DNA of 24,985 nucleotides from a virus, in IMG/VR virus record IMGVR_UViG_3300030099_000439, positions 1 through 24,985 of that record; one strand, written 5' to 3'. Below the pieces are notes generated by a model, which saw only the letters and a list, made by a program, of their open reading frames with translations, made no database searches and was not told the origin of the DNA. Below are positions 6,901 through 24,100 of the stretch, piece after piece; position 1 is the first letter of the stretch; each line of letters starts with the position of its first letter. The translations under genes were made by a program, and so were the position numbers.

Positions 6901-8031
6901 GGTATCGTTATCAATGATGGCAGTAATGACAGAGACTTTAGAATTGAATCTAATGGCGATGCTAATATGTTCTTTGTTGATGGTACTAATGATAAGATTG
7001 GAATTGGTACTGCTAGTCCTGCTGCACAAGTAGAAATAAATGGTGATGGAGAACTTTTAAGATTAGATGGTACTGGAGGTTCTGCTAGAAGTATTCGTTT
7101 TAGAGGTCTATCAACATCAACTCCTGCTTTTATTACAATAGATGGTTCATTTAAACTGCATTGCGAAGATTCAGGAACACACATGGAGTTTCATACTGCA
7201 GATACGGAAAGAATGCGTATTGATTCTTCTGGTGGTGTTGGTATTGGCACTACAACCCCTAGTTCTTATGATTTTAATGACCCTGCAAAATTAGTTGTTG
7301 CTAATACTTCTGGTAATTCAACAATATCTGTAGTAAGTGGAACTTCAAGTAATGGGTATTTAGCATTTGCAGACGGTACTTCAGGAACTGCTAGATATGC
7401 AGGTTCTATACTATATAGTCACTCTTCTCATTATATGTCTTTTCAAACTAGCGATGGTACAGAAAGAATGAGAATTAATGGTTCTGGTCATTTATTAATA
7501 GGTACTTCAGATGCTAGTACTTCAGGTTCAGGATTTAAATTTATTGATAGTAGCACAGAACCTTATGTGGTAACTTCTGTAGATACTAGCAGTAATCACA
7601 TGAGTAATTATCATCATTATAATCAAAATGCTTCATACAATGGATATAGATTTTATATTAGAAATAACGGTGGAGTTGTAAATTATTCTGGAAATAATGT
7701 AAATCTTTCAGATGAAAAAGTAAAAACTAATATAGAACTTTCAGGAAACTATCTTGAAAAAATTTGTAACATTCCTGTTAAGTTGTTTAACTATAAAGAT
7801 GAGCCTGAAGGTGTAGCAAGAAGCTTAGGAGTTATTGCTCAAGACGTAGAAGCTGTCGCACCTGAATTAGTAAACAATGAAGGATTTGGAGATACTCCCG
7901 AAGATGGAGTACCTTTAAAAACAGTTTATACAACAGATATGATGTATGCTCTTATGAAAGCAATTCAAGAACAACAAGAACAGATTGAAGCCTTACAATC
8001 TGAAATTAGCACACTCAAAGGAGGTGAATAA
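3991..8031 (+). CDS. Giant tail fibre with TAELN repeats and C-terminal Peptidase S74 chaperone
   Basis: A 1346-residue fibre. The N-terminus (FADGDTITAALFNDEYNQLV, then GHRHDGTAG) is typical of virion-anchoring ends of phage fibres. Residues 208-363 are twelve tandem 13-residue repeats of consensus TSTTAELNILDGV. Two copies of a beta module begin with GDGSTTAF (about residue 797) and GDGSDTT (about 870), each followed by an IDGV motif. Next come DSSGGVGIGTTTP-type repeats. From about 1240 the protein has LSDEKVKTNI, then a VIAQDVEAVAPELV motif and a helical end with a coiled coil (IQEQQEQIEALQSEISTLK). This is the Peptidase S74 endosialidase-type chaperone, which trimerises the fibre and then cleaves itself off near the conserved Ser (S1240 D1241, with K1244 and K1246 nearby). 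AGGAGATAATT precedes the ATG. It is probably the main receptor-binding fibre. Confidence 0.85.
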   Translation: MAQAYIRQSTFADGDTITAALFNDEYNQLVNAFAYSSSSASSTGHRHDGTAGQGGNIFKIGDLDFLNKIEVDGSNNRLGFYVEVSSAAVEQIRIQDGAIVPVTDSDIDLGTTSLRFKDTFTDSITTTGNVDVGGNLTVTGTTTFNGGTITMGDAATDNVVFGADVDSSIIPDDDDTYDLGSSSQQWRNIFIDGTAEIDTLALDGTTVTSTAAELNILDGVTSTAAELNLLDGVTSTTAELNILDGVTSSTAELNILDGVTSTTAELNILDGVTSTTAELNILDGVTSTAAELNILDGVTATATELNLLDGVTSTTAELNILDGVTSTTAELNILDGVTATAAEINALDGITSTVSELNIVDGDTSATSTTLADADRVVVNDNGTMVQVALTDFETYFESALDTLSNVTTVGALNAGNITSGFGAIDNGSSAITTTGTVTYGSLSDGTITITAFVDEDDMSSNSATLVPTQQSVKAYVDTQLTAEDLDVTTDSGTIAIDLDSETLTIGGTSNEIETSATGNAVTIGIPAAAQITTSLGIGGGSTNGVQISQGSIKIKNGGTQSSVDFYCESNNAHYARLQAPAHANFSGNPVITLPNTTGTLALTSSDITGNAATATALATARTIHGVSFDGTANIDLTEVIQDTVGAMVTGNTESNITVTYEDSDGTLDFSVTGGGSVSEAFKTISVSGQDDVVADSATDTLTLVAGSNMTITTNASGDTITFASSGSGGSQNLFSTIAVSGQSNVVADSTTDTLTLVAGSNITLTTDASSDSITIASSASGSGGSSSTFAKNTFTGDGSTTAFTLSTSMTNEDGLIVFIDGVYQADNVYSVSGTTLTFATAPVNSRVIEVFQLEGGIVGTAPSIDTMTGDGSDTTLSLSVTPTSENQTFVTIDGVVQHKDTYAVSGSTLTFSAAPPTGTKVECITFSNVSIATFQDADSDTKIQVEESTDEDKIRFDIAGTEEMVMDASGIVINDGSNDRDFRIESNGDANMFFVDGTNDKIGIGTASPAAQVEINGDGELLRLDGTGGSARSIRFRGLSTSTPAFITIDGSFKLHCEDSGTHMEFHTADTERMRIDSSGGVGIGTTTPSSYDFNDPAKLVVANTSGNSTISVVSGTSSNGYLAFADGTSGTARYAGSILYSHSSHYMSFQTSDGTERMRINGSGHLLIGTSDASTSGSGFKFIDSSTEPYVVTSVDTSSNHMSNYHHYNQNASYNGYRFYIRNNGGVVNYSGNNVNLSDEKVKTNIELSGNYLEKICNIPVKLFNYKDEPEGVARSLGVIAQDVEAVAPELVNNEGFGDTPEDGVPLKTVYTTDMMYALMKAIQEQQEQIEALQSEISTLKGGE
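4612..5079 (+). repeat. Twelve tandem 39-base coding repeats (13-residue TAELN unit)
   Basis: Twelve in-frame units of 39 bases encode TST(T/A)AELN(I/L)LDGV. The last two are divergent (TATAAEINALDGI and TSTVSELNIVDGD). Units differ mostly at synonymous third positions, for example GGAGTT, GGTGTT, GGGGTA and GGTGTA for the Gly-Val pair. The protein pattern is therefore kept while the DNA drifts. The repeat probably forms a repetitive shaft segment of the trimeric fibre. Confidence 0.9.
8017..8026 (+). promoter_or_regulatory. Ribosome site that fixes the start of the 107-aa gene at 8033
   Basis: AAAGGAGGTG lies inside the last codons of the giant fibre gene, 6 bases before the ATG at 8033. 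The same frame is open further upstream to an ATG at 7985, but that segment lies wholly inside the S74 domain coding sequence and has no such site. Confidence 0.75.
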
Positions 8032-8032
8032 A

Positions 8033-8356
8033 ATGGCAATTAACTATACATGGAATGTAAGCACTGTAGATGTTAAAGAAATAGACGGCAACGCTGATAC
8101 TGTCTTTAATGTCCACTGGAGACTTACTGGAACTGATGATGCTAATGATGAATCTGCTACAGTATATGGTACAGTAGGTTTAGATACTGAAGACTTATCA
8201 GACTTCATAGCCTTTGCAGACTTAACTGTAAGTGATGTACAAGGTTGGGTTGAAGAAGCTATGGGCGAAGAAGCAGTTACTAATATGAAAGCTGGTCTAG
8301 ATGCTCAGATTGAAGAGTTAGTAAATCCAGTAGTTCAAACTAAACAGGTGGGCTAA
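8033..8356 (+). CDS. Small conserved marine phage protein (DUF7936-like)
   Basis: A 107-residue acidic protein. It has a beta-rich first half (YTWNVSTVDVKEIDGNADTV, then FNVHWRLTGTDD and VYGTVGLDTEDLSDFIAF) and a helical second half (VQGWVEEAMGEEAV). The pattern of W-V near the start, VHWRLTGTD in the middle and V-GWV-EA-GEE later matches small proteins found downstream of fibre genes in many marine phages, a family I associate with DUF7936. Its biochemical role is unknown. The start is set by AAAGGAGGTG just upstream; the fibre stop ends 1 base before it. Like the gene at 883, it directly follows a fibre gene, so a role in fibre assembly is plausible but unproven. Confidence 0.7.
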   Translation: MAINYTWNVSTVDVKEIDGNADTVFNVHWRLTGTDDANDESATVYGTVGLDTEDLSDFIAFADLTVSDVQGWVEEAMGEEAVTNMKAGLDAQIEELVNPVVQTKQVG

Positions 8357-8608: not shown

Positions 8609-10642
8609 ATGAAGAAAAAGTACAAAAGAGCAGGTACTACTTCTGAACGTCAAGACTATCGCAAAGGTGGTCAAGTTTCTAAAGACGGTAACAAAAGAGT
8701 AAAACTTATGCCCGGTGGTATGACTGCAGCTATGGGTGCTGACTTTAGCAGACAACTTAGTAATGCTTATAGCGGTGGTATTAATCTAGATTTTTCTAAA
8801 ATAGCAACCACACCAACAGTTAAAAAAACAACACCAGTACAGGCAAATATAATGGCAACAACAGCAGAACAAAAAAGAGAATTAGCTAGAGCATCTGAAA
8901 TAGCTCAGGGTCAAGTAAGTAATTTACCTACACCTGAAGTTGCATCTATTCCATTAGAAGGAGGAAGTGCTCCTATTGTAACAATAGATAAACAAGCTCC
9001 AGTAAGTACTACACAAATAGCTACCCCACAGCAAGAAACAGTTACAACTACTGCTTCTCCAACAACAGTTGCTCAACCAGAAGCTATAACTCCTGCAACT
9101 GTAGAAGCTGCTCAAGTTGAAGCTCCACCTACTTTAACTGCTGCTCAAACTCAAGTTGATGAAACTAAGTTAGCTACTACAGATAAAATAGAAAAACCTG
9201 CAGATATAACTCCTGCTACAGTTGAAATTAAAGAAGGAGCTCTAACACAAAATGTTATTGGAACATTAAGTAGTGAAGCTAAATCTCAAGCTGCTCAAGT
9301 TGCTGGATTAGATTTAGGAAAAGTTACCAGAGCTAAAAAACAATTAAAAACTGCTGGAGTATCTGATAGTACTATTACAAGTTTAGGTAATGACCCAGAA
9401 GCATTAGAAAATGCTTTGATGAATATACCTGAATCAGAAAGAGGTGTCATTGAGGGTTTACCACAAGAAGCATTAGTTAGTAATCAAATTAATACTCTTT
9501 TAGCTGGTATTGAACAAGGACAGATTCCAACATGGGCAAAACCTGCAGTGGCTGCTGTAGAACAAATTTTAGCTTCTAGAGGTTTAGAAGCTTCTACAGT
9601 TGGTAGAGATGCACTTGTAAATACTATTATTCAAAATGCAATGCCTATTGCTCAATCTAATGCTCAAGCAATACAAGCTGCAGTTGCTCAAGAAAGAAGT
9701 ATAGAAGCTCAAGTAGCTATAAAAGAAGCAGAGTTTCAACAACAAAGTGCAATTCAAAACGCACAGAATGTTTTTCAATTAGATTTAGCACAGTTTAGTG
9801 CAGACCAACAAACTGCTTTATCTAATAGTAAATTTTTACAAACAGTCAGTATTACAGAAGCTAATGCTCAACAACAAGCTACTATTCAACAAGCGACACT
9901 AACTGCTCAAGCTAATGTAGCTGATGCAAGTGTTCAAGGTAGATTAGCAATAGAAAATGCTAAAGCTTTTTTACAAACTGATTTAGCTAATTTAAGTGCA
10001 GAACAACAAGTAAATATTCTTGCAGCTCAACAAGACCAACAAAGAATGTTATCTAATCAAGCTGCTCTAAATACTGCTAGACAAATTAATGCTGCTAATG
10101 AAAATCAATTAAATCAATTTTCAGCAAACTTGGCAAATGAAATAAATAAGTTTAATGCTCAAACTAAATTAGCAGCAGAACAATTTAATGCTTCTTCTTT
10201 AAATGCTGCAGAAGCCAGAAGATTAGCTAATGATACTCAATTAGCTCAAGCTAATGCTCAACTTAAATCACAAATAGAAGAATTTAATGCTCAGTTAGAA
10301 TTTAATAGAAATCAATTTAATGCTTCAAATACACAAGCAATATTACAATCTAATACTCAGTGGCGAAGACAAGTTAATTTAACAAATACAGCGACACAAA
10401 ATGCAGTCAATCAACAAAATGCACAGAATGCTTTTAATTTAACAACTCAAGCAAATGCATTTATTTGGCAAACTTTAAGAGACCAAGCAGACTTTGATTT
10501 TAGAGCTGTACAGAATGAAAGAAATAGAGAATCACAAATTATAGCAACAGCACTTTCGGCTGACCCAAAAAGTTTTGCAAGTTCTAAAGCTGACTTACAA
10601 AGTTTAGCTAGGTCATTAGGTGGAAGTGTGTATATAGCATAG
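8609..10642 (+). CDS. Ala/Gln/Asn-rich internal virion or ejection-type protein
   Basis: A 677-residue protein in three parts. Residues 1-50 are basic (MKKKYKRAG, then GGMTAAMGADF). Residues about 105-210 are Thr/Pro/Ala-rich low complexity with two ITPATVE motifs (about 160 and 200). Residues about 305-677 are a long, almost uninterrupted Ala/Gln/Asn helix region, probably coiled coil. A conserved-looking knot at about 307-356 (VEQILASRGLEASTVGRDAL, then NAMPIAQSNAQ) recalls a motif in marine phage virion proteins of this position. There are no membrane segments or catalytic motifs. It leads the block of large proteins before the lysis genes, as internal ejection proteins do in podoviruses. 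A virion role is likely; the exact location is inferred. Confidence 0.65.
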   Translation: MKKKYKRAGTTSERQDYRKGGQVSKDGNKRVKLMPGGMTAAMGADFSRQLSNAYSGGINLDFSKIATTPTVKKTTPVQANIMATTAEQKRELARASEIAQGQVSNLPTPEVASIPLEGGSAPIVTIDKQAPVSTTQIATPQQETVTTTASPTTVAQPEAITPATVEAAQVEAPPTLTAAQTQVDETKLATTDKIEKPADITPATVEIKEGALTQNVIGTLSSEAKSQAAQVAGLDLGKVTRAKKQLKTAGVSDSTITSLGNDPEALENALMNIPESERGVIEGLPQEALVSNQINTLLAGIEQGQIPTWAKPAVAAVEQILASRGLEASTVGRDALVNTIIQNAMPIAQSNAQAIQAAVAQERSIEAQVAIKEAEFQQQSAIQNAQNVFQLDLAQFSADQQTALSNSKFLQTVSITEANAQQQATIQQATLTAQANVADASVQGRLAIENAKAFLQTDLANLSAEQQVNILAAQQDQQRMLSNQAALNTARQINAANENQLNQFSANLANEINKFNAQTKLAAEQFNASSLNAAEARRLANDTQLAQANAQLKSQIEEFNAQLEFNRNQFNASNTQAILQSNTQWRRQVNLTNTATQNAVNQQNAQNAFNLTTQANAFIWQTLRDQADFDFRAVQNERNRESQIIATALSADPKSFASSKADLQSLARSLGGSVYIA

Positions 10643-10646
10643 GAGG
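10641..10646 (+). promoter_or_regulatory. Strong ribosome site with no usable start codon behind it
   Basis: AGGAGG overlaps the TAG of the 677-aa gene. Six bases further on, at 10653, the frame of the 125-aa protein has TTC where a start codon would be expected. The site points to a real N-terminal extension of the next gene. Confidence 0.5.
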
Positions 10647-10754
10647 TGCGACTTCAAATTTATAAGTAATATAGTAAAAGGAGCTGTTAAAGGTGTAAAA
10701 AACGCTGTTAAAGGTGTTGGTCGTTTTGTAAAAAAACACAAAAAAGCAATTTTA

Positions 10755-11132
10755 ATGGCAGGATTAATAGCGGGTATGGTGTTTACAGGTGGTGCTCTAG
10801 CGGGAGCATGGGGTACGGTAGTTCCCGGAAGTGTCGCTGCAGCCTCTGGAGTTGGTGCAGCTAATTTAGGTGCAGCCAGTGTCTTAGCAACTGCAGGAGC
10901 TGCTTCTCCCGGACTTGCAGCACTTGGTACTACTATGTTAGGAACTGGTCTTACTATGGGTGTAGGTCAAGTTGTCCAAAAAATAGAAGGCACACCTGAA
11001 CCGCAATTATTTGGGCAAAATCCCGGACTCGATGTAGAGGGTTCTGGCATGGCTAGACAGCCTATGGGCTTAGGCTATCAACCTACACAGATACAATACG
11101 GTATTGATGGGATTAATGTTCAAGCAGTATAG
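10755..11132 (+). CDS. Gly/Ala-rich hydrophobic virion-like protein, N-terminus probably longer
   Basis: From the first ATG this is a 125-residue protein. Residues 1-75 are hydrophobic and Gly/Ala-rich (AGLIAGMVFTGGALAGAWG, then AAASGVGAANLGAASVLATA), consistent with membrane insertion. A polar tail (GTPEPQLFGQNPGLDVE) follows. No ribosome site precedes 10755. The same frame is open back to 10638 and encodes a basic amphipathic stretch (FKFISNIVKGAVKGVKNAVK, then GVGRFVKKHKK) that looks like a genuine N-terminus behind AGGAGG at 10641. It contains no ATG, GTG or TTG; TTC at 10653 is one base from TTG. The natural protein may be about 159 residues. Its place among the large virion proteins suggests a membrane-active ejection component. 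Confidence 0.6.
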   Translation: MAGLIAGMVFTGGALAGAWGTVVPGSVAAASGVGAANLGAASVLATAGAASPGLAALGTTMLGTGLTMGVGQVVQKIEGTPEPQLFGQNPGLDVEGSGMARQPMGLGYQPTQIQYGIDGINVQAV

Positions 11133-11140
11133 GTAATATT

Positions 11141-11902
11141 ATGGCAGAAAAAGATTTTCAATTAACACAAGAAGAAATAGCAAGTACTCGAAAAAGTACT
11201 CCTACTGAAGCAATAGTTGCTATTCTTGAATTAGCAGAACAAAAAGGAGTTTCTCCTGAAGAACTTGCAAAAATGTTAGGTGTAGATTTAAATGCTGCAG
11301 ATAATAAATTACCTATTGTTGAACAAGACTCAGAAGAAAACTTTAACGAGTTTGTTAAAATAAAATCAAAGGGTGCTGCAATTCCCGGACAGTCTTTGAC
11401 TAACTCTCCAGACGAGCAGTATGCATGGGAGCAGCCCCCTGAATTTGTTAATTTACAAGATTATTTAGGAGATATTTATAATCGTTTATTAACTAAAGAA
11501 TCTATTCAGTCTATTATGAGTGCCTTGGCAAAGGGTACTTCAGTAGAAGATGTAGTTAATCTTATAGTCTATTTAGATTTTACAAATGGTAAAATGAACC
11601 CAGACTTATTAATGTTATCTATAGAACCTATTTTTTATGTAATTTTAACTATAGCAGAAAAATCAAATGTTGATTATCGTTTAACTAATGATGACGAAGA
11701 TGCTATTGCACAAGATTCAGAAAAGTATACAAAGTCTGGAATAGAGGTTATTAAAAATTTAAGTAGGTCAGTAATTGCTGAAGGTATAGATGCAGAAAGT
11801 GTGCCTAAAGAATTACAACAAGAAGTACAAGAAAAAACAGAAAGTTTATTAGCTAGACCAGAAGTTACAAAAGCTAATGACAGTTTATTAGCAGGAGACT
11901 AA
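11141..11902 (+). CDS. Acidic conserved marine phage virion-associated protein
   Basis: A 253-residue acidic protein. The first 75 residues are helical with an EELAKMLGVDL segment. At about residue 80 comes AAIPGQSLTNSPDEQYAWEQ followed by PPEF. This Pro-Gly...Trp-Glu-x-Pro-Pro-Glu signature recurs, as I recall, in marine phage proteins encoded beside virion genes. The central part (about 105-180) is helical with a hydrophobic stretch (LLMLSIEPIFYVILTIAEKS) that is too mixed to be a clear membrane segment. The C-terminus is charged and helical. It begins 8 bases after the previous stop with a weak AGGTAA. I cannot assign a function; its position between ejection-type proteins suggests a virion or assembly role. 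Confidence 0.6.
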   Translation: MAEKDFQLTQEEIASTRKSTPTEAIVAILELAEQKGVSPEELAKMLGVDLNAADNKLPIVEQDSEENFNEFVKIKSKGAAIPGQSLTNSPDEQYAWEQPPEFVNLQDYLGDIYNRLLTKESIQSIMSALAKGTSVEDVVNLIVYLDFTNGKMNPDLLMLSIEPIFYVILTIAEKSNVDYRLTNDDEDAIAQDSEKYTKSGIEVIKNLSRSVIAEGIDAESVPKELQQEVQEKTESLLARPEVTKANDSLLAGD

Positions 11903-17400: not shown

Positions 17401-18637
17401 TAGTAATACAGTTTTAAAAAGATTTGCTAGGGAATCAGGTCTTCAAGATTTAGCTAAAGGTAATATTAGAAAAGCTTTTATGGTAACAAGTCCTAAAACC
17501 ATAGGAACTGTTATAGCTATGACTGGTGTTGCAGTTCTTGGTGATTATCTTAGAAGTAGAGGAGAGTCTTTTGAAAATAAAGAACCGGGAGAAATAATAG
17601 CTAGAGGTGTAAGACGATTTGGTGGCTTTGGTCCTTTTGACTACGGTGATAGATTTATGAAAGAGTTAGAGTTTAATCGTAATCTTTTAGTTGGTGTACC
17701 TAAATCTGTGTTAGGTCCAGCAGCTCAAGATGTTGTAGATGGAATTAGATTTGGAACTGGTGTAGGAGATTTAGTTAGTAGAAATTTTCCGGGAATAGCT
17801 GCTTTTGATTTATTTGGTGGTAAAGGAACTAAAAAAGATTTTAATAAATATTTTAGAGAACTTGATAAAGATTTATATGAAGCTATAACAGACTCTGTAG
17901 GAGTGTCTTCTGAAAAAGACCTAGAAGGCATAGCAACTTTCTCAACCGGAGGAGAAGTTAATATACCTAATGCTCCTATAGAACCTGACCAAAGAGTTGA
18001 CAGAATGACTGGAGTTCCTTATGACGAACAAGCTGGACCCGCTTTTCAAGACGAGGAAGACAGAATAGGTTTTTTAGGTGGTGGTTTATTAAAAACACTA
18101 CAGAGAAGACAAAGAAAAGTTGTAGGCGGAAAGATAGCAAAGTTAGTAAAACTTAATTATTCAAAATTAAAAGGTAAAGATATAAAGATTCCTAGTACAC
18201 CTAAACAAGGAGATACTAAAAGTTTAGAAAACTTTTTAACAGATGATAAATTTAAAAATTTTGGGGTGCTAACTTTTGATAAAAGTCGCTTAAATAAAAT
18301 GGAAAAAGATTTTTCTTTAGATTTAGATGACTATGAAAATACTTTAAGAGAGTTATTTTTTACAAAACAAGAAGATTATAGGTTTTTAAAAGATATGGTA
18401 AAGAAAAATAAAAATTTACCAGACGAACTAATTTCTAAAAAAATTAAACAAATTAAAAATCTTACTAATGAACTATCAATTTCAGATGTTCAAAAATTAA
18501 ACAAGCTAACTGATGAACAAGTTTCTAAAGTATTAAAAAAACTTCGAGCAGAAATTAAAAATAATGAGAAATTTTATGGCGGAATGAATTACATAGATGT
18601 TGAAGCCATAATTAACTCTGTAAAAAATCTTAAATAA
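14450..18637 (+). CDS. Giant internal/ejection-type virion protein (1395 aa)
   Basis: A 1395-residue protein, the largest in the window and comparable in size to T7 gp16, but without a visible N-terminal lytic transglycosylase. Features in order: a DIFTDPISILAGIFAVP motif (123-140); a Gly-rich hydrophobic segment at 183-240 (GTAAFSGVAGGALSSL); a QMAHLPLATISSLSEP motif near 729; a GQLLMQFAGYPTVFSNTVL motif near 970; a hydrophobic stretch near 1015-1031 (TIGTVIAMTGVAVLGDYL). At about 1162-1215 comes FSTGGEVNIPNAPIEPDQRV followed by DRMTGVPYDEQAG, a block I associate with marine phage internal proteins. It ends in a Lys-rich helical tail of about 180 residues. The ATG has a poor ribosome site and lies 5 bases after the previous stop, so coupling is likely. 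The ejection role is inferred. Confidence 0.65.
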   Translation: MQDKELTDFLYDTVYGTKTVKDEKSVYTPTTRESYSLKDLKKDNTFNTTAARFLTSVGRNSENIFEYLRDTDASPLSAITRSFEIGDWSSQDVQDYNYLRETFDNAEVGGFQERLGLVKDYAIDIFTDPISILAGIFAVPTRGTSLKAQAAARGLVQKGLKKLSAEAKSKFRKEGFKTGLYRGAPAFAVEGGLYDYFNQTSDIKLGVDYDDKINWDSLLGTAAFSGVAGGALSSLTQGLNASRLLKKEFDFSNDMMIAKRATSKDKNLQAKDFYKEYEDFNDFEHVPYKENMSEWTDRIFKTFLSKTVGKTTTEYLNASKSSKTLREFIKNLRNDFDYTLGDPSIKRVAEETFGQYRGRLQGFGLARVEKALDNLRRTGFFNVKVNPDDNLALFTYLNDKTAKTFLKNGVETPIPNYVIDSGKEIRKVLNVLFREANKSDVIDKFRFIKDYFPRMFNYSALSQKDGRELLKNKIIEYNHAEPINVLKKSKFRLDNAKNQRLRDLSDDDLLLGIDENEVGLDVELFNRNFEKDAYRFYLKESGIGNKQLKKRLNEYDDYARDNAGESILETFDDETLVNRILDDARELKADAIIDNMLEYKWTPFEFRPTGQVGQGKSFLKQRVFSNIPANEIAPILETDVETLLKNYVVQSAQTTARGKYFGFSLDTFNSRYLQPIRTELIDAGMPEADVLKIQKKIQDTYLQVTGLSPQRIQNNVLSKASDATRLFNQMAHLPLATISSLSEPVILLQRAGLEDTPAVVNDIAGSLVKEVKRTANRVIGGIKRKVAGKEGARNTFKDLKDDEYFELYETGLALESAVLDRIEGLTGEALETGWMKGAQNIFFRLNALEQWTRSVQLASFTTGKRLIMRNIENLYNHSMGVEKKRFFKLNKTDFDYFQDQLAELQINPKEAVEWYGSQTDKFGVFQEVNAKSSKFYKQNILRGANQFTKEVILNPSNAEANRPLWFGSPAGQLLMQFAGYPTVFSNTVLKRFARESGLQDLAKGNIRKAFMVTSPKTIGTVIAMTGVAVLGDYLRSRGESFENKEPGEIIARGVRRFGGFGPFDYGDRFMKELEFNRNLLVGVPKSVLGPAAQDVVDGIRFGTGVGDLVSRNFPGIAAFDLFGGKGTKKDFNKYFRELDKDLYEAITDSVGVSSEKDLEGIATFSTGGEVNIPNAPIEPDQRVDRMTGVPYDEQAGPAFQDEEDRIGFLGGGLLKTLQRRQRKVVGGKIAKLVKLNYSKLKGKDIKIPSTPKQGDTKSLENFLTDDKFKNFGVLTFDKSRLNKMEKDFSLDLDDYENTLRELFFTKQEDYRFLKDMVKKNKNLPDELISKKIKQIKNLTNELSISDVQKLNKLTDEQVSKVLKKLRAEIKNNEKFYGGMNYIDVEAIINSVKNLK

Positions 18638-19002
18638 TGTATAAATATTTTAACGAAGACGAATTAAAGTGTAGACATACTGGTCAGTGTGATATGGACT
18701 GGGCATTTATGCAGACCATAGAAAGAATTAGGGAACGCTGTGGTTTTCCTTTTAAAGTAAGCAGTGCCTATCGTTCCACTGAGCACCCTATAGAAGCTGC
18801 AAAGGATAATCCAGGTGCTCATACAACAGGTAAAGCTATGGATATATTGGTTAGTGGCGAACAAGCTATGACTCTTATAAAGATAGCTATCGAAGAGGGC
18901 ATTAACAGGATTGGAGTCGCACAAAAAGGAGACCGTGCTTCAAGATTTATTCATTTAGATATGGATAATTCTAGAGCTACTCCTAGAGTTTGGAGCTACT
19001 AA
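18637..19002 (+). CDS. M15-family peptidoglycan peptidase (endolysin)
   Basis: A 121-residue single-domain enzyme of the Peptidase M15 type, the zinc D-Ala-D-Ala or L-Ala-D-Glu peptidase fold used by phage endolysins. The pattern is complete: FKVSSAYRS (39-47) with the substrate-binding Arg46; GAHTTGKAMDI (60-70) supplying zinc ligands His62 and Asp69; and FIHLDM (104-109) supplying His106. There is no signal peptide, so it needs a holin or equivalent to reach the wall. The ATG overlaps the stop of the giant virion gene by one base (TAATG). It opens a small-gene block with two membrane proteins, as in a lysis cassette. The family assignment is firm; the exact peptide bond cut is not known. 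Confidence 0.85.
   Translation: MYKYFNEDELKCRHTGQCDMDWAFMQTIERIRERCGFPFKVSSAYRSTEHPIEAAKDNPGAHTTGKAMDILVSGEQAMTLIKIAIEEGINRIGVAQKGDRASRFIHLDMDNSRATPRVWSY
18992..18995 (+). promoter_or_regulatory. Ribosome site supporting a TTG start at 19003
   Basis: GGAG lies 7 bases before TTG at 19003, itself directly after the endolysin stop. The first in-frame ATG is 24 codons later and would remove the likely conserved N-terminus. Confidence 0.55.
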
Positions 19003-19248
19003 TTGATACTCTATAGAGAAAAAGACTTAGACGAAGCTTACAAAATAGATTGTAAAGCTCGTTCTCGTAATAACATGCCTTGGATAAAGCGAGAAGATTT
19101 TAGAAAGATATACGAAGACTTAATGGATTTGTATATGATACAACTAAGTCCTAGACAGCTCTTAGAAGTTGAAGAGATACCAGAAGTAGTTTTAGATTCA
19201 CTAAAAGGAATATTAAATAAAAGTTTACATTTTGAACCGGAGGAATAA
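19003..19248 (+). CDS. Small charged phage protein in the lysis cassette, TTG start
   Basis: An 81-residue, charged, soluble protein. It reads as LYREKDLDEAYKIDCKARSR, then MPWIKREDFRKIYEDLMDL, then an acidic helical end (EEIPEVVLDSLKGILNK). It has no membrane segment, signal or enzyme motif. A similar small protein beside lysis genes is familiar from marine T7-like phages, but I know no function for it. Translation starts at TTG directly after the endolysin stop, supported by GGAG 7 bases upstream. Its own stop overlaps the next ATG (TAATG), so endolysin, this gene and the holin-like gene are tightly coupled. Confidence 0.65.
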   Translation: MILYREKDLDEAYKIDCKARSRNNMPWIKREDFRKIYEDLMDLYMIQLSPRQLLEVEEIPEVVLDSLKGILNKSLHFEPEE

Positions 19249-19649
19249 TGCCAGACCCAATAACAAATTCAGTAGTAGGAATAGCAGGTAGTGTTTTAAA
19301 TAAGTTTGTCGCAGACAAAAACTTAAAAATGAAACTTGAGCATGAACTCAAGACACAATTACAGACTGCTAATCTTGCTCAAGTACAAATTAATAAAATA
19401 GAAGCCGGACACAAATCTTTATTTGTAGCAGGTTGGAGACCTTCTGTAGGTTGGGTATGTAGCATTGCTATGGCATACCACTTCATCTTAGCTCCAATAG
19501 TTGAGTTCGGTGTTAACATCGCAGGTATTCAAGTAAGTTTACCTGAGTTTGACTTTTCACAACTGTCCACGATTCTAATGGCTATGCTTGGCATGGCAGG
19601 TCTTAGGACATACGAAAAGCAAAAGAAAGTTGCCAAAGGTGACGACTAA
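19248..19649 (+). CDS. Holin-like protein of the GTA 3TM type
   Basis: A 133-residue protein matching the GTA_holin_3TM pattern. It has an amphipathic N-terminal helix (VVGIAGSVLNKFVADKNLKM), a charged helix to about residue 55 and a conserved GWRPSVGWVCSIAMAYHFIL (62-81). This is followed by a second part of the membrane region (APIVEFGVNIAGI) and a third hydrophobic helix (about 104-120, FSQLSTILMAMLGMAGL) ending in a basic tail (RTYEKQKKVAKGDD). Holins of this group form lesions in the inner membrane that release or activate the endolysin, here the M15 peptidase two genes upstream. GGAGG precedes the ATG, which overlaps the preceding stop by one base. Family confidence is good from the GWRP signature. 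Confidence 0.8.
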   Translation: MPDPITNSVVGIAGSVLNKFVADKNLKMKLEHELKTQLQTANLAQVQINKIEAGHKSLFVAGWRPSVGWVCSIAMAYHFILAPIVEFGVNIAGIQVSLPEFDFSQLSTILMAMLGMAGLRTYEKQKKVAKGDD

Positions 19650-19654
19650 TAATA

Positions 19655-19939
19655 ATGACAGGTGAATGGATAACAGTAGTAGAAACTATCGGTATACCAG
19701 CAGTGGTAGCGATAGGTCTTGGTTATTTAGTTTGGACATTATTTAAATCGTTGATAGCTGACTTACATAAAAAGTTAGATACTCAACATCAAATGATTGT
19801 TGCCTTGATAGATAGAATCAGGCAAATGGATAATGATATGATTCGTATAGATGCAATGTGTCGAGCTGCAATGGGTATCAAGCCCGATACGAATCGAATA
19901 GCCAGAGCAGACGGTCAAAAAGACCAACGCAAAGACTAA
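19655..19939 (+). CDS. One-TM coiled-coil protein of the lysis cassette
   Basis: A 94-residue protein with one membrane helix at about 10-31 (IGIPAVVAIGLGYLVWTLFK). A charged heptad helix follows (LHKKLDTQHQMIVALIDRIR) and then a short tail with AAMGIKPDTNRIARADGQ. It has the size and layout of phage accessory holin or spanin-like inner-membrane proteins, and similar proteins are common beside 3TM holins in marine phages. No lipobox is visible, so it is not a typical outer-membrane spanin; an inner-membrane spanin or second holin are both possible. AAAGGTG inside the end of the holin gene, 11 bases before the ATG, is the likely ribosome site. Confidence 0.65.
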   Translation: MTGEWITVVETIGIPAVVAIGLGYLVWTLFKSLIADLHKKLDTQHQMIVALIDRIRQMDNDMIRIDAMCRAAMGIKPDTNRIARADGQKDQRKD

Positions 19940-19964
19940 TCAAAATTTTATTAAAAGGTGCTGA

Positions 19965-20099
19965 ATGTTCTTGTCATTCGGTAGAATTAACTATTTTCAC
20001 AAAGGAGGTAAAAGAGTGAGAACAGACGAAACTGTATGCGTATTATGCATAATGTTTTGGGTTGCTTGTGGTATGTTTTATGCTACTGTAACTTTTTAA
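19965..20099 (+). CDS. Tiny membrane peptide with two possible starts
   Basis: A 44-residue frame from ATG 19965, or 27 residues from GTG 20016 in the same frame. The C-terminal 20 residues (CVLCIMFWVACGMFYATVTF) form one Cys-rich hydrophobic segment. The longer form adds 17 residues with several basic side chains (FGRINYFHKGGKRV). Both starts have ribosome sites: AGGTG 4 bases before the ATG, and a stronger AAAGGAGG (20001-20008) 7 bases before the GTG. It is the last gene of the late operon, just after the lysis genes, so a lysis-related membrane peptide is plausible. It is too short to identify by family. Its stop is interlocked with that of the convergent gene. Confidence 0.5.
   Translation: MFLSFGRINYFHKGGKRVRTDETVCVLCIMFWVACGMFYATVTF
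20001..20008 (+). promoter_or_regulatory. Ribosome site for an internal GTG start at 20016
   Basis: AAAGGAGG is one of the strongest ribosome sites in the window and is placed 7 bases before GTG 20016. It lies within the longer reading frame that begins at 19965, where it encodes Lys-Gly-Gly. Confidence 0.5.
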
Positions 20100-20329
20100 T
20101 CCGTATTTTGAACACGGGCATTTAAACAAGATTCAATATAACTATGTATTTCATCAAGTTTAACTGTAGCTTCTCTTATGATAACCCGAAGATTTTCATA
20201 GTCTTGTCGGGATAAATATTTTTTAAGTTTCGCTATGTCAACTTTGGTTCTTTCCGTGACAAGGTTTCCGCTTTTGTCATATAGTAATCTATAAGCTAAG
20301 AGTTGTGCTTCATTTCGTTTCGTTTTCAT
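20096..20329 (-). CDS. Small charged protein after nrdB
   Basis: A 77-residue, basic, helical protein (KRNEAQLLAYRLLYDKSGNL, then LKKYLSRQDYENLRVIIREA, then EIHSYIESCLNA). It has no membrane segment or catalytic motif and I do not recognise the family. It starts inside the last 20 bases of nrdB, with AGGAT upstream of the ATG, so it is translationally coupled to the reductase small subunit. It is the last gene of the minus-strand operon and meets the late operon stop-to-stop. The coupling to nrdB is visible; any role in nucleotide metabolism is only suggested by position. Confidence 0.65.
   Translation of the reverse strand: MKTKRNEAQLLAYRLLYDKSGNLVTERTKVDIAKLKKYLSRQDYENLRVIIREATVKLDEIHSYIESCLNARVQNTD
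20101..20117. other. Short hairpin at the operon convergence point
   Basis: The sequence CCGTATT-TTG-AACACGG can fold as a 7-bp stem with a 3-base loop. On the plus strand it has one A-C mismatch; in the minus-strand transcript that pair is a G-U wobble. It sits in the last codons of the 77-aa gene, immediately beyond the plus-strand stop. No U-run follows in either direction, so it is not a textbook terminator, though it is placed where one would be useful. Confidence 0.3.
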
Positions 20330-21302
20330 TGTTAAATCCTGTAAAGGTTAATTGTCCATAATCACCTCTCAGTCCGGCTTTTTGATATGAGGTAGCTCTA
20401 CCTTCAAAAAAGTTTTGATGCTCTACTCCCAACACATCATCTAACCATCCTAAAGGATTATCTTTCTGATTAAAGTTAGGTTTAAGTCCTAACTGTAACA
20501 GTCTTCTATCAGCAATGTATTTGTTGTACGCATACATTTCTTCTTTAGTTAATCCTTCAATATCTCCCATTTCGAATACTAAGTCCAAGAACTTTTCTTC
20601 TAGTTTTACCATATCTCTACATATCTGATAGATTTCTTTTTTAAAGTCATCTGTCCAAATATCTAAATTTTCTTTGATAAATTCTCTAAATAGTTTAGTC
20701 ATTGCTTCTACATGTAAGCTTTCATCTTTAATAGAGTAAGCCACAATCTGACACATACCTTTCATCTTTCCATATCTTTGAAAGTTCATGAGTATAGCGA
20801 AGCTACTGAATAGCTGTAAGCCTTCCGTAAAGGCTGAATAAACGGCTAAAGCTTTGGCGATAGTCCTTTTATCAGACTTAACAGTTCTAAGGTCTGTAAT
20901 GTACTCATGTTTGTTAGACATTTCTTCATACTCTGCAAAAGCTTTATACTCCATTTCAGGCATACCAACAGTATCTAATAATAAACTATAAGCATGTTGA
21001 TGAATTGCTTCCATGTTGCCAAAGGATAACATCATCATTCTAGCTTCTGGAAGTTTAAAAAGTTGCATGTACTTTTCTACATATCCTGAAGCAACATCTA
21101 CATCTGATTGCGTAAACAATCTAAATATTTGAACTAAAAGATTCTTTTCTGAATCAGTCAACCTTTCATTCCAATCTTTTACATCAGTATGTAGTGGTAC
21201 TGACATAGGATGCCAGTGCATTCTGTTTTGTAAATCGTAATACTCAAACATCCAACCATAGTCAAAAGGTTTGTAGTAATCTCTAGTTTTTAATAGACTC
21301 AT
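20310..21302 (-). CDS. nrdB: Class I ribonucleotide reductase small (radical) subunit
   Basis: A 330-residue R2 protein that generates the tyrosyl radical used by NrdA to reduce ribonucleoside diphosphates. All expected metal ligands are present: Asp67 (QSDVDV), Glu98 and His101 (NMEAIHQHAY), Glu160 (FTEGLQLF), and Glu194 and His197 (KDESLHVEAM). Tyr105, in the E-x-x-H-x-x-x-Y pattern, is the radical Tyr. It is therefore of the tyrosyl-radical type rather than the Phe-substituted class Ic type. The length suits phage R2 proteins. The ATG overlaps the stop of the 69-aa gene, with AGGAGG upstream. It lies downstream of nrdA in one operon, giving a complete enzyme for phage DNA synthesis. Confidence 0.95.
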   Translation of the reverse strand: MSLLKTRDYYKPFDYGWMFEYYDLQNRMHWHPMSVPLHTDVKDWNERLTDSEKNLLVQIFRLFTQSDVDVASGYVEKYMQLFKLPEARMMMLSFGNMEAIHQHAYSLLLDTVGMPEMEYKAFAEYEEMSNKHEYITDLRTVKSDKRTIAKALAVYSAFTEGLQLFSSFAILMNFQRYGKMKGMCQIVAYSIKDESLHVEAMTKLFREFIKENLDIWTDDFKKEIYQICRDMVKLEEKFLDLVFEMGDIEGLTKEEMYAYNKYIADRRLLQLGLKPNFNQKDNPLGWLDDVLGVEHQNFFEGRATSYQKAGLRGDYGQLTFTGFNNENETK

Positions 21303-21511
21303 TAAAATTCCTCCTGTATTATTTTTAATTTCTCAGAAGCACTAGCATATTTTTTTACAAGTTCATCCATAGATTTGACCACATTAGGATGGTCTGCTAC
21401 GGCTACTTTATGCTCAAAAAATATTTCGAGATTAGCTTTAGCTTCTGCTTTTTCTGCTTTGTATTTTGTTTCTAGAGCTTTATACAATAGTGCTCCTGAA
21501 TATTTAGTCAT
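21302..21511 (-). CDS. Small protein between nrdA and nrdB
   Basis: A 69-residue charged helical protein (MTKYSGALLYKALETKYKAE at the start, then KAEAKANLEIFFEHKVAVAD, then ELVKKYASASEKLKIIQEEF). The start at 21511 is chosen because it lies one base after the nrdA stop with GAGGGA upstream. An in-frame ATG 11 codons earlier would sit inside the nrdA C-terminus. It has no membrane segment or enzyme motif, and I do not recognise it. Its stop overlaps the nrdB ATG, so it is translated with both reductase subunits. A structural or regulatory link to the reductase is possible but rests on position alone. Confidence 0.65.
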   Translation of the reverse strand: MTKYSGALLYKALETKYKAEKAEAKANLEIFFEHKVAVADHPNVVKSMDELVKKYASASEKLKIIQEEF

Positions 21512-21512
21512 A

Positions 21513-23402
21513 TTATCCCTCACAAGCAATACATTCCACTTCATCTAACTTAATTCGTGGAACTTTAATGTTAACATTCTCTGCAGCTTTAGCAGCATCA
21601 GACCTAAAATAGTAAAGTGATTTTAATTTATTCGCACCGTACCAGTGAACATCACTAACATACTGTAAGTATTCATTGTGCTGTTCTTGGTCTTGAGTTG
21701 AGTCAGGTAAGATAAAAAATAAATTAACACTTTGACTTTGACATATAAACTCTTGTCGCTTATACGCATGTTCGACAACCCAGATTTGATTTATCTCATC
21801 TGCGGTTTTAAATACTTCTTTTTCTTCTTTTGTAAATAACTTTAACTCTTGTATTGACCCACGATTATCACTAATATCTTGCCAAACTTTCTTACGCTTT
21901 TTAGGGTCGGTTACTTTTTTGTTGATGATTTTTTCGAGGCTTTTATTTCTAACTTTGTAGCTTCCAGATAGCGTTTTGTGAGTGAAGACGTTAGCCCTGA
22001 TAGGCTCGATGGACGGAGAAGTTCCCCCACAAATAATACTGGAACTAGCATTAGGTGCAACAGCAAGGAGATGGCAATTCCTAAGACCAGAATTAGAAAT
22101 ATCAGGAGCTTCCCCCCGTAATACAGCAAGTCTTCGAGATGCAAGAACAGCAGCTCCTTTGATGAACTTAAATAATTTATAGTTGATTCCAGTCGAGAAG
22201 ATTCCCTCAAAGGGAATGTTTTGACTTTGTAAATAAGAATGAAAACCCATTGCACCAAGACCGATAGACCTTTCACGATAGGCTGAATAAGCAGCTTTTG
22301 TAAAACCTTCTTTACCTTCTTTAATGTGTTTTTTAAATCTTTCATAATTTGCATTATAACCTCCAAGTGAATTTAAATCGACTGCATTTTCAATAAAGTG
22401 TTCTAGCACATTGTCAAGCATAGTTACTAAATCATCTATAAATTTATCATCTTTAGACCATTCATCAAAGTGTTCAAGGTTGACACTTGACAAACAACAG
22501 ACTGCAGTTCTTTCATCATTAGTAGGTAAAGTTATTTCTGAACATAAGTTACTTTGTTTTACCTCTAATCCTAAATCTTTTTGTCCTTGTGGTAGAGCAT
22601 CATTACAATTATCTATATTAACAATGTAAGGCTCTCCAGTTTCTGCTCTAGCATCTAATAGTTTAGACCAGAGTTCTCTAGCTTTAATAATCTTAACAGC
22701 TTCATTTGTTTTTGGGTCAATCAATCGCCAGTCATCATCTTCTTCTACAGCTTTTAGAAATGCATTAGTTATGTTAACTCCATTGTGTAAGTTCAAACAT
22801 TTTCTATTTACATCGCCACCGGATTCTTTTCGCATGACCATAAACTCTTCAATCTCTGGATGTGATATATCCATGTAAGCAGCATAACTACCTCGTCTAG
22901 TTACCCCTTGATTAAAAGCTAACATCTGCGAGTCTACTACTTTCATAAATGGTATTGAGCCAGTAGACTTACTACCATTACTTGTAGGTATGCCGTCACT
23001 TCTAACATCTCCCCAATAACCACCAATACCACCACCAGAACTAGCTAACCAAATGTTTTCATCATAGTGGCTAGATAAACCTTCACGATTATCAGGAACA
23101 TAATTAAGAAAACAACTGATAGGTAATCCTCTAGTTGTACCGCCATTAGAAAGAATAGGAGTAGAAAACATAAACCAAAGATTAGAAACATAGTTATAAA
23201 TTCTTTGAGCCATGTCAAAGTCAGTTTCTTCTTTGAATGTCGAAACAAATACTGAAGCTCTAGCAAAAGCTTCTTGTGGCGAAGTTTCGTTCTGCCATAA
23301 ATATCTATCTTGAAGAGTATCTAAACTAAACTTGTCTAACTTTTTATCTCTGTCATAGTTTATAATTATTCCTAGATAAGGGTGCTCACCTTTTTTCTCC
23401 AT
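21513..23402 (-). CDS. nrdA: Class I ribonucleotide reductase large (catalytic) subunit
   Basis: A 629-residue R1 protein. The catalytic set is complete: Cys97 (PISCFLN); Asn285, Cys287 and Glu289 (SNLCSEI); and Cys302 (AVCCLSSVNL), the partner of Cys97 in the redox pair. Tyr597-Tyr598 (LKSLYYFRS) are for radical transfer, and the C-terminal shuttle pair is Cys624/Cys627 (ECIACEG). A GGGIGG loop lies at 123-128. It is shorter than the E. coli enzyme (761 aa) because the N-terminal ATP-cone is missing, as in many phage enzymes, so dATP shut-off at that site should not occur. AGGAGG lies 6 bases before the ATG. The first codons overlap the end of the DUF3310-like gene. With NrdB it supplies dNTP precursors during infection. 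Confidence 0.95.
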   Translation of the reverse strand: MEKKGEHPYLGIIINYDRDKKLDKFSLDTLQDRYLWQNETSPQEAFARASVFVSTFKEETDFDMAQRIYNYVSNLWFMFSTPILSNGGTTRGLPISCFLNYVPDNREGLSSHYDENIWLASSGGGIGGYWGDVRSDGIPTSNGSKSTGSIPFMKVVDSQMLAFNQGVTRRGSYAAYMDISHPEIEEFMVMRKESGGDVNRKCLNLHNGVNITNAFLKAVEEDDDWRLIDPKTNEAVKIIKARELWSKLLDARAETGEPYIVNIDNCNDALPQGQKDLGLEVKQSNLCSEITLPTNDERTAVCCLSSVNLEHFDEWSKDDKFIDDLVTMLDNVLEHFIENAVDLNSLGGYNANYERFKKHIKEGKEGFTKAAYSAYRERSIGLGAMGFHSYLQSQNIPFEGIFSTGINYKLFKFIKGAAVLASRRLAVLRGEAPDISNSGLRNCHLLAVAPNASSSIICGGTSPSIEPIRANVFTHKTLSGSYKVRNKSLEKIINKKVTDPKKRKKVWQDISDNRGSIQELKLFTKEEKEVFKTADEINQIWVVEHAYKRQEFICQSQSVNLFFILPDSTQDQEQHNEYLQYVSDVHWYGANKLKSLYYFRSDAAKAAENVNIKVPRIKLDEVECIACEG

Positions 23403-23667
23403 TCTTTTCCTCCTGTCTTAATATGTAAATTGCTATCATTGTATAGTGTATAATTTTTAGTAAATCATCAACATTTTTACCATCTTTTTTACCAAACCTC
23501 ATGGCATATTTCATAATGTTACCCATAGTAAAACCTTCGCCATAACCGGCATCAAGTATCATATCGGTAGCTTGATATTTTCCATGTGAATAGTGCTTAT
23601 CATAAGTACCATCAACATAATGTTCTATCATTTTTAATATTATTTTTTCGTCAAATTTATAATTCAT
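23386..23667 (-). CDS. DUF3310-like phage protein (T7 gp1.7-related group)
   Basis: A 93-residue protein. It carries a DUF3310-like pattern: HYSHGKYQATDMI (25-37), then DAGYGEGFTMGNIMKYAMRF (39-58), GKKDGK and DDLLKIIHY (67-75), with a charged C-terminal tail. DUF3310 proteins are short, common in lytic phages and related to T7 gp1.7, a nucleotide kinase. Whether this short form has kinase activity is not known. The start at 23667 is chosen because the frame upstream lies inside the endonuclease I gene. It overlaps that gene by 11 bases and nrdA by 17 bases, so the three are coupled. The nucleotide-metabolism setting fits the family. Confidence 0.7.
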   Translation of the reverse strand: MNYKFDEKIILKMIEHYVDGTYDKHYSHGKYQATDMILDAGYGEGFTMGNIMKYAMRFGKKDGKNVDDLLKIIHYTMIAIYILRQEEKNGEKR

Positions 23668-24100
23668 TGTCTTTCCATTCATCAGGTAAATTGCCTTCAT
23701 AAAACCAACGGAAGTCGTTAGCTTCTGCCCATTCAGCATGAGTTCTTTTACTACCATCTCTTCTTTTCTTAGCTTGAGGCATAGGGGCATAAGGTTTTTG
23801 AAAAAAGAAAACTAACTCAACATTATCAGGTAAAGCATCACGAATGTGAATGTATTTACTATACTCTGCATAATCCCAAAACCTGCCTTTAGCTTCAATT
23901 AAGATAACCTTTTCATCATCAAACACTCTGACAAAATCAGGTTCGTATTTTTTAGGAATATTATAACTAACCGTATCGTAATGATGCAGCCACTTATTAA
24001 ATAATCTTTGATGTATTTCGTATTCCCAATGACTGTCATAGCCTCTAGGAACACCTGCTTCTTTTTTAGGTCTTGGTTTTCTTGGTTTTCTTCTTGCCAT
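23657..24100 (-). CDS. T7 endonuclease I-like Holliday junction resolvase
   Basis: A 147-residue protein, close to T7 gp3 (149 aa). It has the endonuclease I metal site: an N-terminal acidic residue (Glu26 or Glu28 in DSHWEYEIHQ), Asp55 (YEPDFVRVF), and Glu69 with Lys71 (VILIEAKGRF), followed by YIHIRDALPDNVELVFFF, the conserved core strand. The enzyme cuts four-way junctions and branched DNA. In T7 it resolves phage DNA before packaging and helps degrade host DNA. The first 13 residues (MARRKPRKPRPKK) are very basic and overlap the end of the upstream nuclease gene in another frame. No later Met is available before the core, so the start is secure. Confidence 0.85.
   Translation of the reverse strand: MARRKPRKPRPKKEAGVPRGYDSHWEYEIHQRLFNKWLHHYDTVSYNIPKKYEPDFVRVFDDEKVILIEAKGRFWDYAEYSKYIHIRDALPDNVELVFFFQKPYAPMPQAKKRRDGSKRTHAEWAEANDFRWFYEGNLPDEWKDNEL

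What the first reader, a model, noticed from the sequence alone, without database searches (positions are those of the whole stretch)
10638..10754. N-terminal coding sequence of a virion gene without a usable start codon
The frame of the 125-aa protein is open for 39 codons before its first ATG and encodes a basic amphipathic stretch (FKFISNIVKGAVKGVKNAVK). This is just what a small membrane-active virion protein might begin with. AGGAGG at 10641 is ideally placed for a start at 10653, but that codon is TTC, one base from TTG, a start already used at 19003. Possible explanations are a non-canonical start, a one-base sequence variant or error, or +1 frameshifting. Frameshifting could run from GTG 10646 (GTG CGA CTT C AAA), or at the TAG of the 677-aa gene, which would make a fusion.
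Basis: partly seen in the sequence, partly recalled or inferred. Interest (0 to 1): 0.55.

Follow-up and report, generated by a model that had tools for sequence, protein, structure and literature searches.

The report
Phage gene missing its start codon
In one marine phage population a conserved small gene keeps its full coding sequence and an unusually strong ribosome-binding site but has TTC about where the examined relatives have ATG, so it either starts translation in an unusual way or has lost its proper start.

Summary
The frame of the 125-aa ORF is open for 39 codons before ATG 10755, without ATG/GTG/TTG. The extension is real coding sequence: in HMO-2011-type phages and related viral contigs the gene in this slot begins with a Lys-rich amphipathic stretch running into a hydrophobic core, and 56 of 56 HMM-positive relatives with an intact 5' end start it with ATG (52 with ATG GGN). 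Met 10755 has no Shine-Dalgarno (SD) and aligns inside the hydrophobic segment of homologues. In the window the upstream stop TAG overlaps AGGAGGTG, the strongest SD of this gene among the 57 sequences; TTC follows AGGAGG after six bases. A second contig, 19 SNPs away (18 synonymous), has the same site, so a single-contig error is unlikely.

Frameshift and fusion are not supported: relatives have two separate genes, and no stop codon follows CTT. I favour weak, SD-driven non-AUG initiation at UUC 10653, as in Streptomyces sigR (GTC behind AGGAGGTG). Against it: with IF3 present UUC is rejected in vitro, no relative shares it, and alignment does not fix the codon. Loss of the start, initiation at AUA 10662, or a shared consensus error remain possible. 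Reads, ribosome mapping or peptides must decide.

The parts
8609..10642 (+). 677-aa upstream gene; its stop TAG 10640-10642 overlaps the SD of the small gene
   Evidence: C-terminal 280 aa 57-59% identical in L099-L102 and L109
10641..10648 (+). extended Shine-Dalgarno AGGAGGTG (8-nt complement of the E. coli 16S tail)
   Evidence: duplex energy -13.9 kcal/mol, second strongest of 23 window genes; 56 relatives at the same gene -3.7 to -11.0
10646..10648 (+). GTG internal to the SD, in another frame; rejected as start
   Evidence: same trap as the annotated GTG of sigR (PMC5472188)
10653..10655 (+). TTC in frame, 6 nt after AGGAGG, about where relatives have ATG; leading candidate initiation codon by spacing
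10662..10664 (+). ATA in frame, near-cognate alternative start (15 nt after AGGAGG)
10653..10754 (+). coding extension FKFISNIVKGAVKGVKNAVKGVGRFVKKHKKAIL: Lys-rich amphipathic helix, net charge +10
   Evidence: (residues 1-20 pLDDT about 80)
10755..11132 (+). 125-aa core (hydrophobic Gly/Ala-rich segment, then C-terminus); ATG 10755 aligns inside the hydrophobic segment of L014, L015 and L020 and has no SD
   Evidence: (SD energy -0.1)
11141..11902 (+). 253-aa gene, conserved marker of the locus used to find relatives

Best explanation
The gene is intact and runs from about 10653 to 11132 (159 codons including TTC). It is translated at low level by non-AUG initiation: ribosomes finishing the 677-aa gene at TAG 10640-10642, or free 30S subunits, are held by the extended SD AGGAGGTG that overlaps the stop, and start at UUC 10653 (usable spacing, about the position of ATG in relatives), perhaps with some starts at neighbouring codons; AUA 10662 as the sole start is counted apart below. 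fMet would be inserted. The product would be a small membrane-active protein of the presumed ejection module with a cationic amphipathic N-terminal helix; a weak start would keep its amount low and make it sensitive to IF3. Shown: coding extension, absent canonical start, strong SD, ATG in relatives, same site in two haplotypes. Inferred: that translation starts here, which codon, low yield, IF3 control, ejection role.
For: Frame and SD. Homologues share the extension and start it with ATG. SD strongest of 57 versions of this gene (-13.9 against -3.7 to -11.0) and second of 23 genes in the window. L099-L102 and L109 have TAGGAG + 6 nt + ATG at the junction; window TTC lies one base further. 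Twin contig keeps TTC across 19 SNPs, 18 synonymous, the one in this gene synonymous. ORF fully open. ATG 10755 has no SD and lies inside the hydrophobic segment. Precedents, passages read: sigR GTC start behind AGGAGGTG, annotated GTG inside the SD, IF3-repressed (PMC5472188); non-AUG (AUA, AUU) starts with extended SDs at about 10% of AUG in poor medium, up to 30% in rich, in S. aureus (PMC13009471); without IF3, subunits join on UUC at nearly the AUG rate (PMC7907450).
Against: UUC mismatches the initiator anticodon at two positions and formed no 30S complex in vitro with IF3 present (PMC7907450). None of the relatives examined outside this population has a non-AUG start here, L070 being unclear. 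The Lys repeat makes the register uncertain: of 38 good alignments 16 imply a Met at the impossible 10608, 5 at 10641, 5 at 10653, 1 at 10659; a profile ranks 10677 and mean BLOSUM ranks 10707 just above 10653. Counted from AGGAGGTG the spacer to TTC is 4 nt, shorter than in any of the 56 relatives (5-18), though two other window genes have 4. AGGAG at the junction is common in the family, so only its extension by GTG is special; AGGAGGTG occurs twice in the window and 7 of 100 shuffles have as many. SD compensation was not significant in alphaproteobacteria by cumulative substitutions (PMC5622118), the likely host class. The window protein scores weakly against the family HMM (E 0.09 and 0.45).
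Confidence: 0.42

Rival explanations
1. Start loss: in this population the ATG was destroyed (two substitutions, or a small in-frame deletion of the first codons) and the gene is silent or makes only a trace of N-truncated protein from ATG 10755. The strong SD is a relic.
For: Relatives have ATG; UUC is a very poor start (PMC7907450); TTC sits at about the expected SD spacing, as a replaced or deleted ATG would leave; by hand count the window has 44 residues from TTC to the TGG motif and L015 has 46 from Met, which fits loss of two codons (the pairwise alignment puts the gap elsewhere).
Against: ORF fully open, its one SNP synonymous; state shared by two haplotypes 19 SNPs apart; ATG 10755 has no SD. 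A gene fills this slot in the loci examined with enough upstream sequence (56, 22, HTVC033P). Whether a second copy exists elsewhere is open: on the twin contig the HMM gives this gene only E 0.2 and two other ORFs 0.025 and 0.16.
Confidence: 0.25
2. Shared consensus error or mixed population: the real majority genome has a normal start codon and both contigs carry the same wrong or minority bases.
For: Besides the window's record only one contig with the site was found in IMG/VR, and the tool says that records very near the window may be left out; reads cannot be seen; the origin of the window's record is unknown, so the contigs may share samples or methods.
Against: Two separately stored contigs that differ by 19 SNPs and one non-aligning 40-base stretch agree at every base of 10638-10741.
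Confidence: 0.18
3. Near-cognate AUA at 10662 is the real and sole start; TTC is merely spacer.
For: AUA is a mapped natural start with extended SDs (PMC13009471); L090, L084 and L011 align their Met one codon upstream of it, at 10659 (0, 27 and 16 of 300 shuffles reach their scores). Six of 56 relatives also have spacers of 12-18 nt by the same measure.
Against: 15 nt from AGGAGG, 13 from AGGAGGTG, outside the usual 5-9 nt quoted in PMC2268962; 50 of 56 relatives have 5-11 nt.
Confidence: 0.12
4. Programmed +1 frameshifting, from GTG 10646 or at the TAG of the 677-aa gene (fusion protein).
For: The frames permit it; CTT C can slip in principle; an SD lies upstream.
Against: GTG is inside the SD; the codon after CTT is CAA, not a stop; in the loci looked at the small gene has its own ATG.
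Confidence: 0.03

Closest known systems
Streptomyces sigR (GTC start codon, IF3-repressed; PMC5472188, passages and section 6 read)
   Same: Extended RBS AGGAGGTG; a GTG internal to it that invites mis-annotation; the true start would be an NTC codon with two mismatches to the initiator anticodon.
   Different: sigR: GTC 6 nt after AGGAGGTG (derived from the codons named in section 6), present in 32 of 34 species and proven by mutation; here TTC, 4 nt after AGGAGGTG, in one phage population, untested.
infC/ccpN/cvfC1 type AUA/AUU starts with extended SD (PMC13009471, passages read)
   Same: Strong extended SD at a non-AUG site.
   Different: Those are single-mismatch codons, conserved and mapped by ribosome profiling.
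Small basic protein of the HMO-2011-type structural module (for example HTVC104P gp60, HTVC115P gp45, annotated hypothetical)
   Same: Lys-rich amphipathic N-terminus, hydrophobic segment, place between the 677-aa-like side and the 253-aa-like gene (in these two phages further small genes lie between).
   Different: Those start ATG GGN; the window protein is shorter (159 aa against 413 and 417).
prfB-type +1 frameshift (recalled, not tested by any search)
   Same: SD-like element upstream of a CTT codon.
   Different: No stop codon after CTT; relatives do not have the arrangement.

Membership tests
Small basic gene of the HMO-2011-type structural module | Position between the 677-aa-like and 253-aa-like genes | tested here: met
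Small basic gene of the HMO-2011-type structural module | Lys-rich amphipathic N-terminal stretch followed by a hydrophobic Gly/Ala core | tested here: met
   alignment with L014, L015, L020 over extension and core
Small basic gene of the HMO-2011-type structural module | Significant match to the family HMM built from relatives | tested here: inconclusive
   E 0.093 and 0.45; tblastn without composition correction 3.6e-11 to 7e-11 against L020, L014 and L015, but with composition correction none of these three was listed at E up to 10
Small basic gene of the HMO-2011-type structural module | ATG start (mostly ATG GGN) | tested here: not met
   56 of 56 relatives ATG, window TTC AAA
Small basic gene of the HMO-2011-type structural module | Product present in the virion | not testable with these tools
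   one search of the held library for HMO-2011 virion proteomics listed only an Alteromonas siphophage paper
Genes with a functional non-canonical start codon | No canonical start in frame for a conserved N-terminus | tested here: met
Genes with a functional non-canonical start codon | Strong or extended SD at proper spacing | tested here: met
   6 nt from AGGAGG, 4 nt from AGGAGGTG
Genes with a functional non-canonical start codon | Non-canonical codon conserved between species | tested here: not met
   seen only in the two haplotypes of one population
Genes with a functional non-canonical start codon | Initiation shown by mutation, ribosome profiling or N-terminal peptide | not testable with these tools
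   needs experiment
Programmed +1 frameshift | Stop codon in the A site after the slippery codon, arrangement shared by relatives | tested here: not met
   CTT followed by CAA; relatives have a separate ATG gene

The most novel reading that the evidence does not exclude
A marine phage translates a membrane-active structural-module protein from UUC, a codon that IF3 normally rejects, by means of an SD that overlaps the upstream stop codon, so that the protein's dose is tied to translation of the gene before it and to the IF3 level of the host. It would be the first natural UUC start that I know of (from memory; one search of the held library for four phrases, listed a single paper, an in vitro study).
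Probability: 0.2. Interest if true: 0.7.

Novelty: new variant of a known kind. Interest (0 to 1): 0.42.

Why it matters
A gene caller that allows only ATG/GTG/TTG would miss the true N-terminus of this gene, and the protein would look like a 125-aa product without its cationic helix. If initiation at UUC (or AUA) is real, it extends natural start codons in phages and offers a clean case of SD strength offsetting a bad start codon. If the start is simply lost, it is a phage population that carries a disabled structural-module gene.

Tried and rejected
Frameshift or fusion: rejected from relatives and local sequence. Start at ATG 10755: no SD (-0.1 kcal/mol) and it aligns within the hydrophobic segment. 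Fixing the exact codon by alignment failed: leave-one-out recovery of Met by the profile was 37 of 46; the window's best profile positions were 10677 and 10653, best mean BLOSUM positions 10707 and 10653; pairwise registers scatter because of the Lys repeat, 16 of 38 good ones implying the impossible 10608. RNA hairpin around the site: z = -0.20, no signal. Structure: mean pLDDT 48, only the first 20-30 residues usable, so no fold search was run. PDB, Pfam and PHROG searches of the small protein gave nothing significant (best E 0.01, 0.12 and 0.42). Searches for closer relatives through the small protein, the 253-aa, 846-aa and 1395-aa genes gave the twin contig, L004 (which does not reach the site) or nothing. 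INPHARED tblastn with the small protein: no match at E 0.01.

Counts: the A1 search kept the best 80 of 416 confirmed stretches, so the relatives are a capped list. 97 loci were scanned with the family HMM, 58 matched at E < 1e-6, 2 of these were cut at the 5' end, leaving 56. The script takes the first in-frame ATG; that it stands at the start of the motif was seen in the printed N-termini; for 55 it is also the first listed start, for L024 a TTG comes 18 codons earlier. Several are near-identical: 46 distinct N-termini. Of the 39 loci without a match I looked at 22 with enough upstream sequence: 21 have ATG as the first listed start of the slot gene, L070 has TTG five codons before an ATG. 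The other 17 were not tallied, mostly because the contig begins too near; among them HTVC033P (L011) has ATG, and HMO-2011 (L010) has in the slot only an unannotated ORF of about 68 codons unlike the family.

Full report
What is there. The window is part of a 28.5-kb virus record. Its 536-aa gene matches HTVC104P (46%), HTVC103P, HTVC115P, HMO-2011 and other phages, 33 records in all, so the phage belongs to or near the HMO-2011-type marine podoviruses; its host is probably a marine alphaproteobacterium (inference). The 677-aa gene (8609-10642) ends in TAG 10640-10642. The TAG overlaps AGGAGGTG (10641-10648). Six bases after AGGAGG comes TTC 10653, which opens the frame FKFISNIVKGAVKGVKNAVKGVGRFVKKHKKAIL and runs without a stop into the 125-aa ORF that starts at ATG 10755.

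The extension is coding sequence. Through the conserved 253-aa neighbour (A1; best 80 of 416 confirmed stretches kept) and the 677-aa gene I collected viral contigs that carry this locus, and annotated phages. In most of them the gene in this slot starts ATG GGN and encodes MG followed by a Lys-rich amphipathic stretch and a hydrophobic segment. Of 97 loci scanned, 58 match the family HMM at E < 1e-6 and 56 of these have a complete 5' end; 56 of 56 have ATG at the motif, 55 as the first listed start, and 52 of 56 have GGN next. In 22 further loci the slot gene is more diverged; 21 have ATG as first listed start. L014, L015 and L020 align with the window over extension and core together, and ATG 10755 falls within their hydrophobic segment. 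The extension beats its own shuffles against 9 of 12 relatives with at most 2 of 1000 reaching the score, but not against L013 (995), L017 (40) and L099 (55). The window's own HMM score is weak (E 0.09 and 0.45), and tblastn support from L014, L015 and L020 (about 1e-11 to 1e-10) vanishes when composition is corrected for; a short basic repeat can hardly do better, but it is a limit. AlphaFold gives the first 20 residues pLDDT about 80 within one helix (2-28), later blocks 67 and less. Hydrophobic moment 0.77, 2 of 2000 shuffles as high; net charge +10.

The start codon. No ATG, GTG or TTG is in frame between the last stop and 10755. Relatives closest in the upstream gene (L099-L102, L109) have TAGGAG-6 nt-ATG at the same junction; TTC lies one base further. 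L017-L019 begin ATGAAATTTATA against window TTCAAATTTATA. Yet the Lys repeat blurs the register: among positions that are possible at all, 10641 and 10653 tie (5 each of 38 good alignments), L090 points to 10659 (with L011 and L084, weaker), and 16 of 38 imply the impossible 10608. By hand count L015 would also fit a loss of the first two codons. I therefore claim the region 10653-10662, with TTC first on spacing and ATA 10662 first on codon quality.

Not a simple assembly error. A 42.7-kb contig, IMGVR_UViG_3300030330_000396, agrees with the window at every base from 10638 to 10741. The two differ at 19 of 24,945 aligned positions, 18 of them synonymous, including the only one in this gene (10742); nine lie in one 80-base patch. 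So two haplotypes share the site. Whether they come from separate samples is not known. No other contig with the site was found, with the caveat that near records may be left out by the tool.

The SD. Duplex energy with the E. coli 16S tail (host tail unknown) is -13.9 kcal/mol, second strongest of 23 genes in the window (the strongest, -17.5, belongs to ATG 8033). In the 56 relatives the same gene has -3.7 to -11.0, median -6.2. AGGAGGTG occurs twice in the window, expected 0.36, and 7 of 100 shuffles have two or more. Two cautions: AGGAG at the stop is common in the family, so only the added GTG needs explaining; and the spacer from AGGAGGTG to TTC is 4 nt where relatives have 5 to 18, 50 of 56 of them 5 to 11. 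ATG 10755 has no SD (-0.1).

How it may work. Non-AUG initiation aided by a strong SD is known: sigR of Streptomyces starts at GTC behind AGGAGGTG, with a wrongly annotated GTG inside the SD, and is repressed by IF3 (PMC5472188, passages and section 6 read). In S. aureus AUA and AUU starts have extended SDs and yield about 10% of AUG, up to 30% in rich medium (PMC13009471, passages). Genes with GUG/UUG tend to have stronger SDs, though in alphaproteobacteria the difference in cumulative substitutions was not significant (PMC5622118, passages). UUC itself is harder: with IF3 no 30S complex formed on UUC in vitro; without IF3 subunits joined at nearly the AUG rate (22.9 against 25.6 per s, amplitude 30% lower; PMC7907450, passages). 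Re-initiation after a nearby stop is helped by an SD (PMC2268962, passages), and here the SD overlaps the stop. I put 0.42 on non-AUG initiation led by UUC 10653, 0.12 on AUA 10662 as the sole start, 0.25 on start loss, 0.18 on shared consensus error, 0.03 on frameshifting.

Role. The run 677 - small - 253 - 846 - 1395 aa lies just before genes that match endolysin and holin families, and the 1395-aa protein itself matches PHROGs of virion proteins and of an endolysin. By position and by its cationic helix plus hydrophobic core the small protein is probably part of the DNA-ejection set. This is inference; one search of the held library found no proteomic study of these virions.

Noticed in passing
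19003-19248: 81-aa ORF with TTG start directly after the stop of the 121-aa peptidase-like gene; contig L004 has the same TTG and the identical 81 aa, so TTG is probably a real start in this population.
   Followed up: partly
17432-18129, L004: L004 (IMGVR_UViG_3300030108_000837) is 96.6% identical to the window over 18115-21303 and 95.7% over 21508-23468, but 86% over 17432-18088 with several hundred extra bases before 18115, and it lacks about 200 bases near 21303-21508: possible recombination boundaries.
   Followed up: no
22757-22836: Nine of the 19 SNPs between the window and its twin contig fall in this 80-base patch of the 629-aa gene, all synonymous; 23786-23825 does not align at all.
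   Followed up: no
8018-8033: Strongest SD of the window (AAGGAGGTGA) before ATG 8033; the TTG 7985 start listed for this ORF is probably mechanical only.
   Followed up: partly
8609-10642: The 677-aa protein has a weak sequence match (E 0.05) to a chain named Cargo protein 1 gp45 (7qog_M), residues 466-556.
   Followed up: no
L009 25861-26310: HTVC115P carries a gene annotated toxin-activating lysine-acyltransferase just before its small basic gene.
   Followed up: no
L010 32525-32712: HMO-2011 has about 190 bases without an annotated gene between its 706-aa gene and its 253-aa-family gene, where other phages carry the small gene; an ORF of about 68 codons unlike the family is open there.
   Followed up: partly
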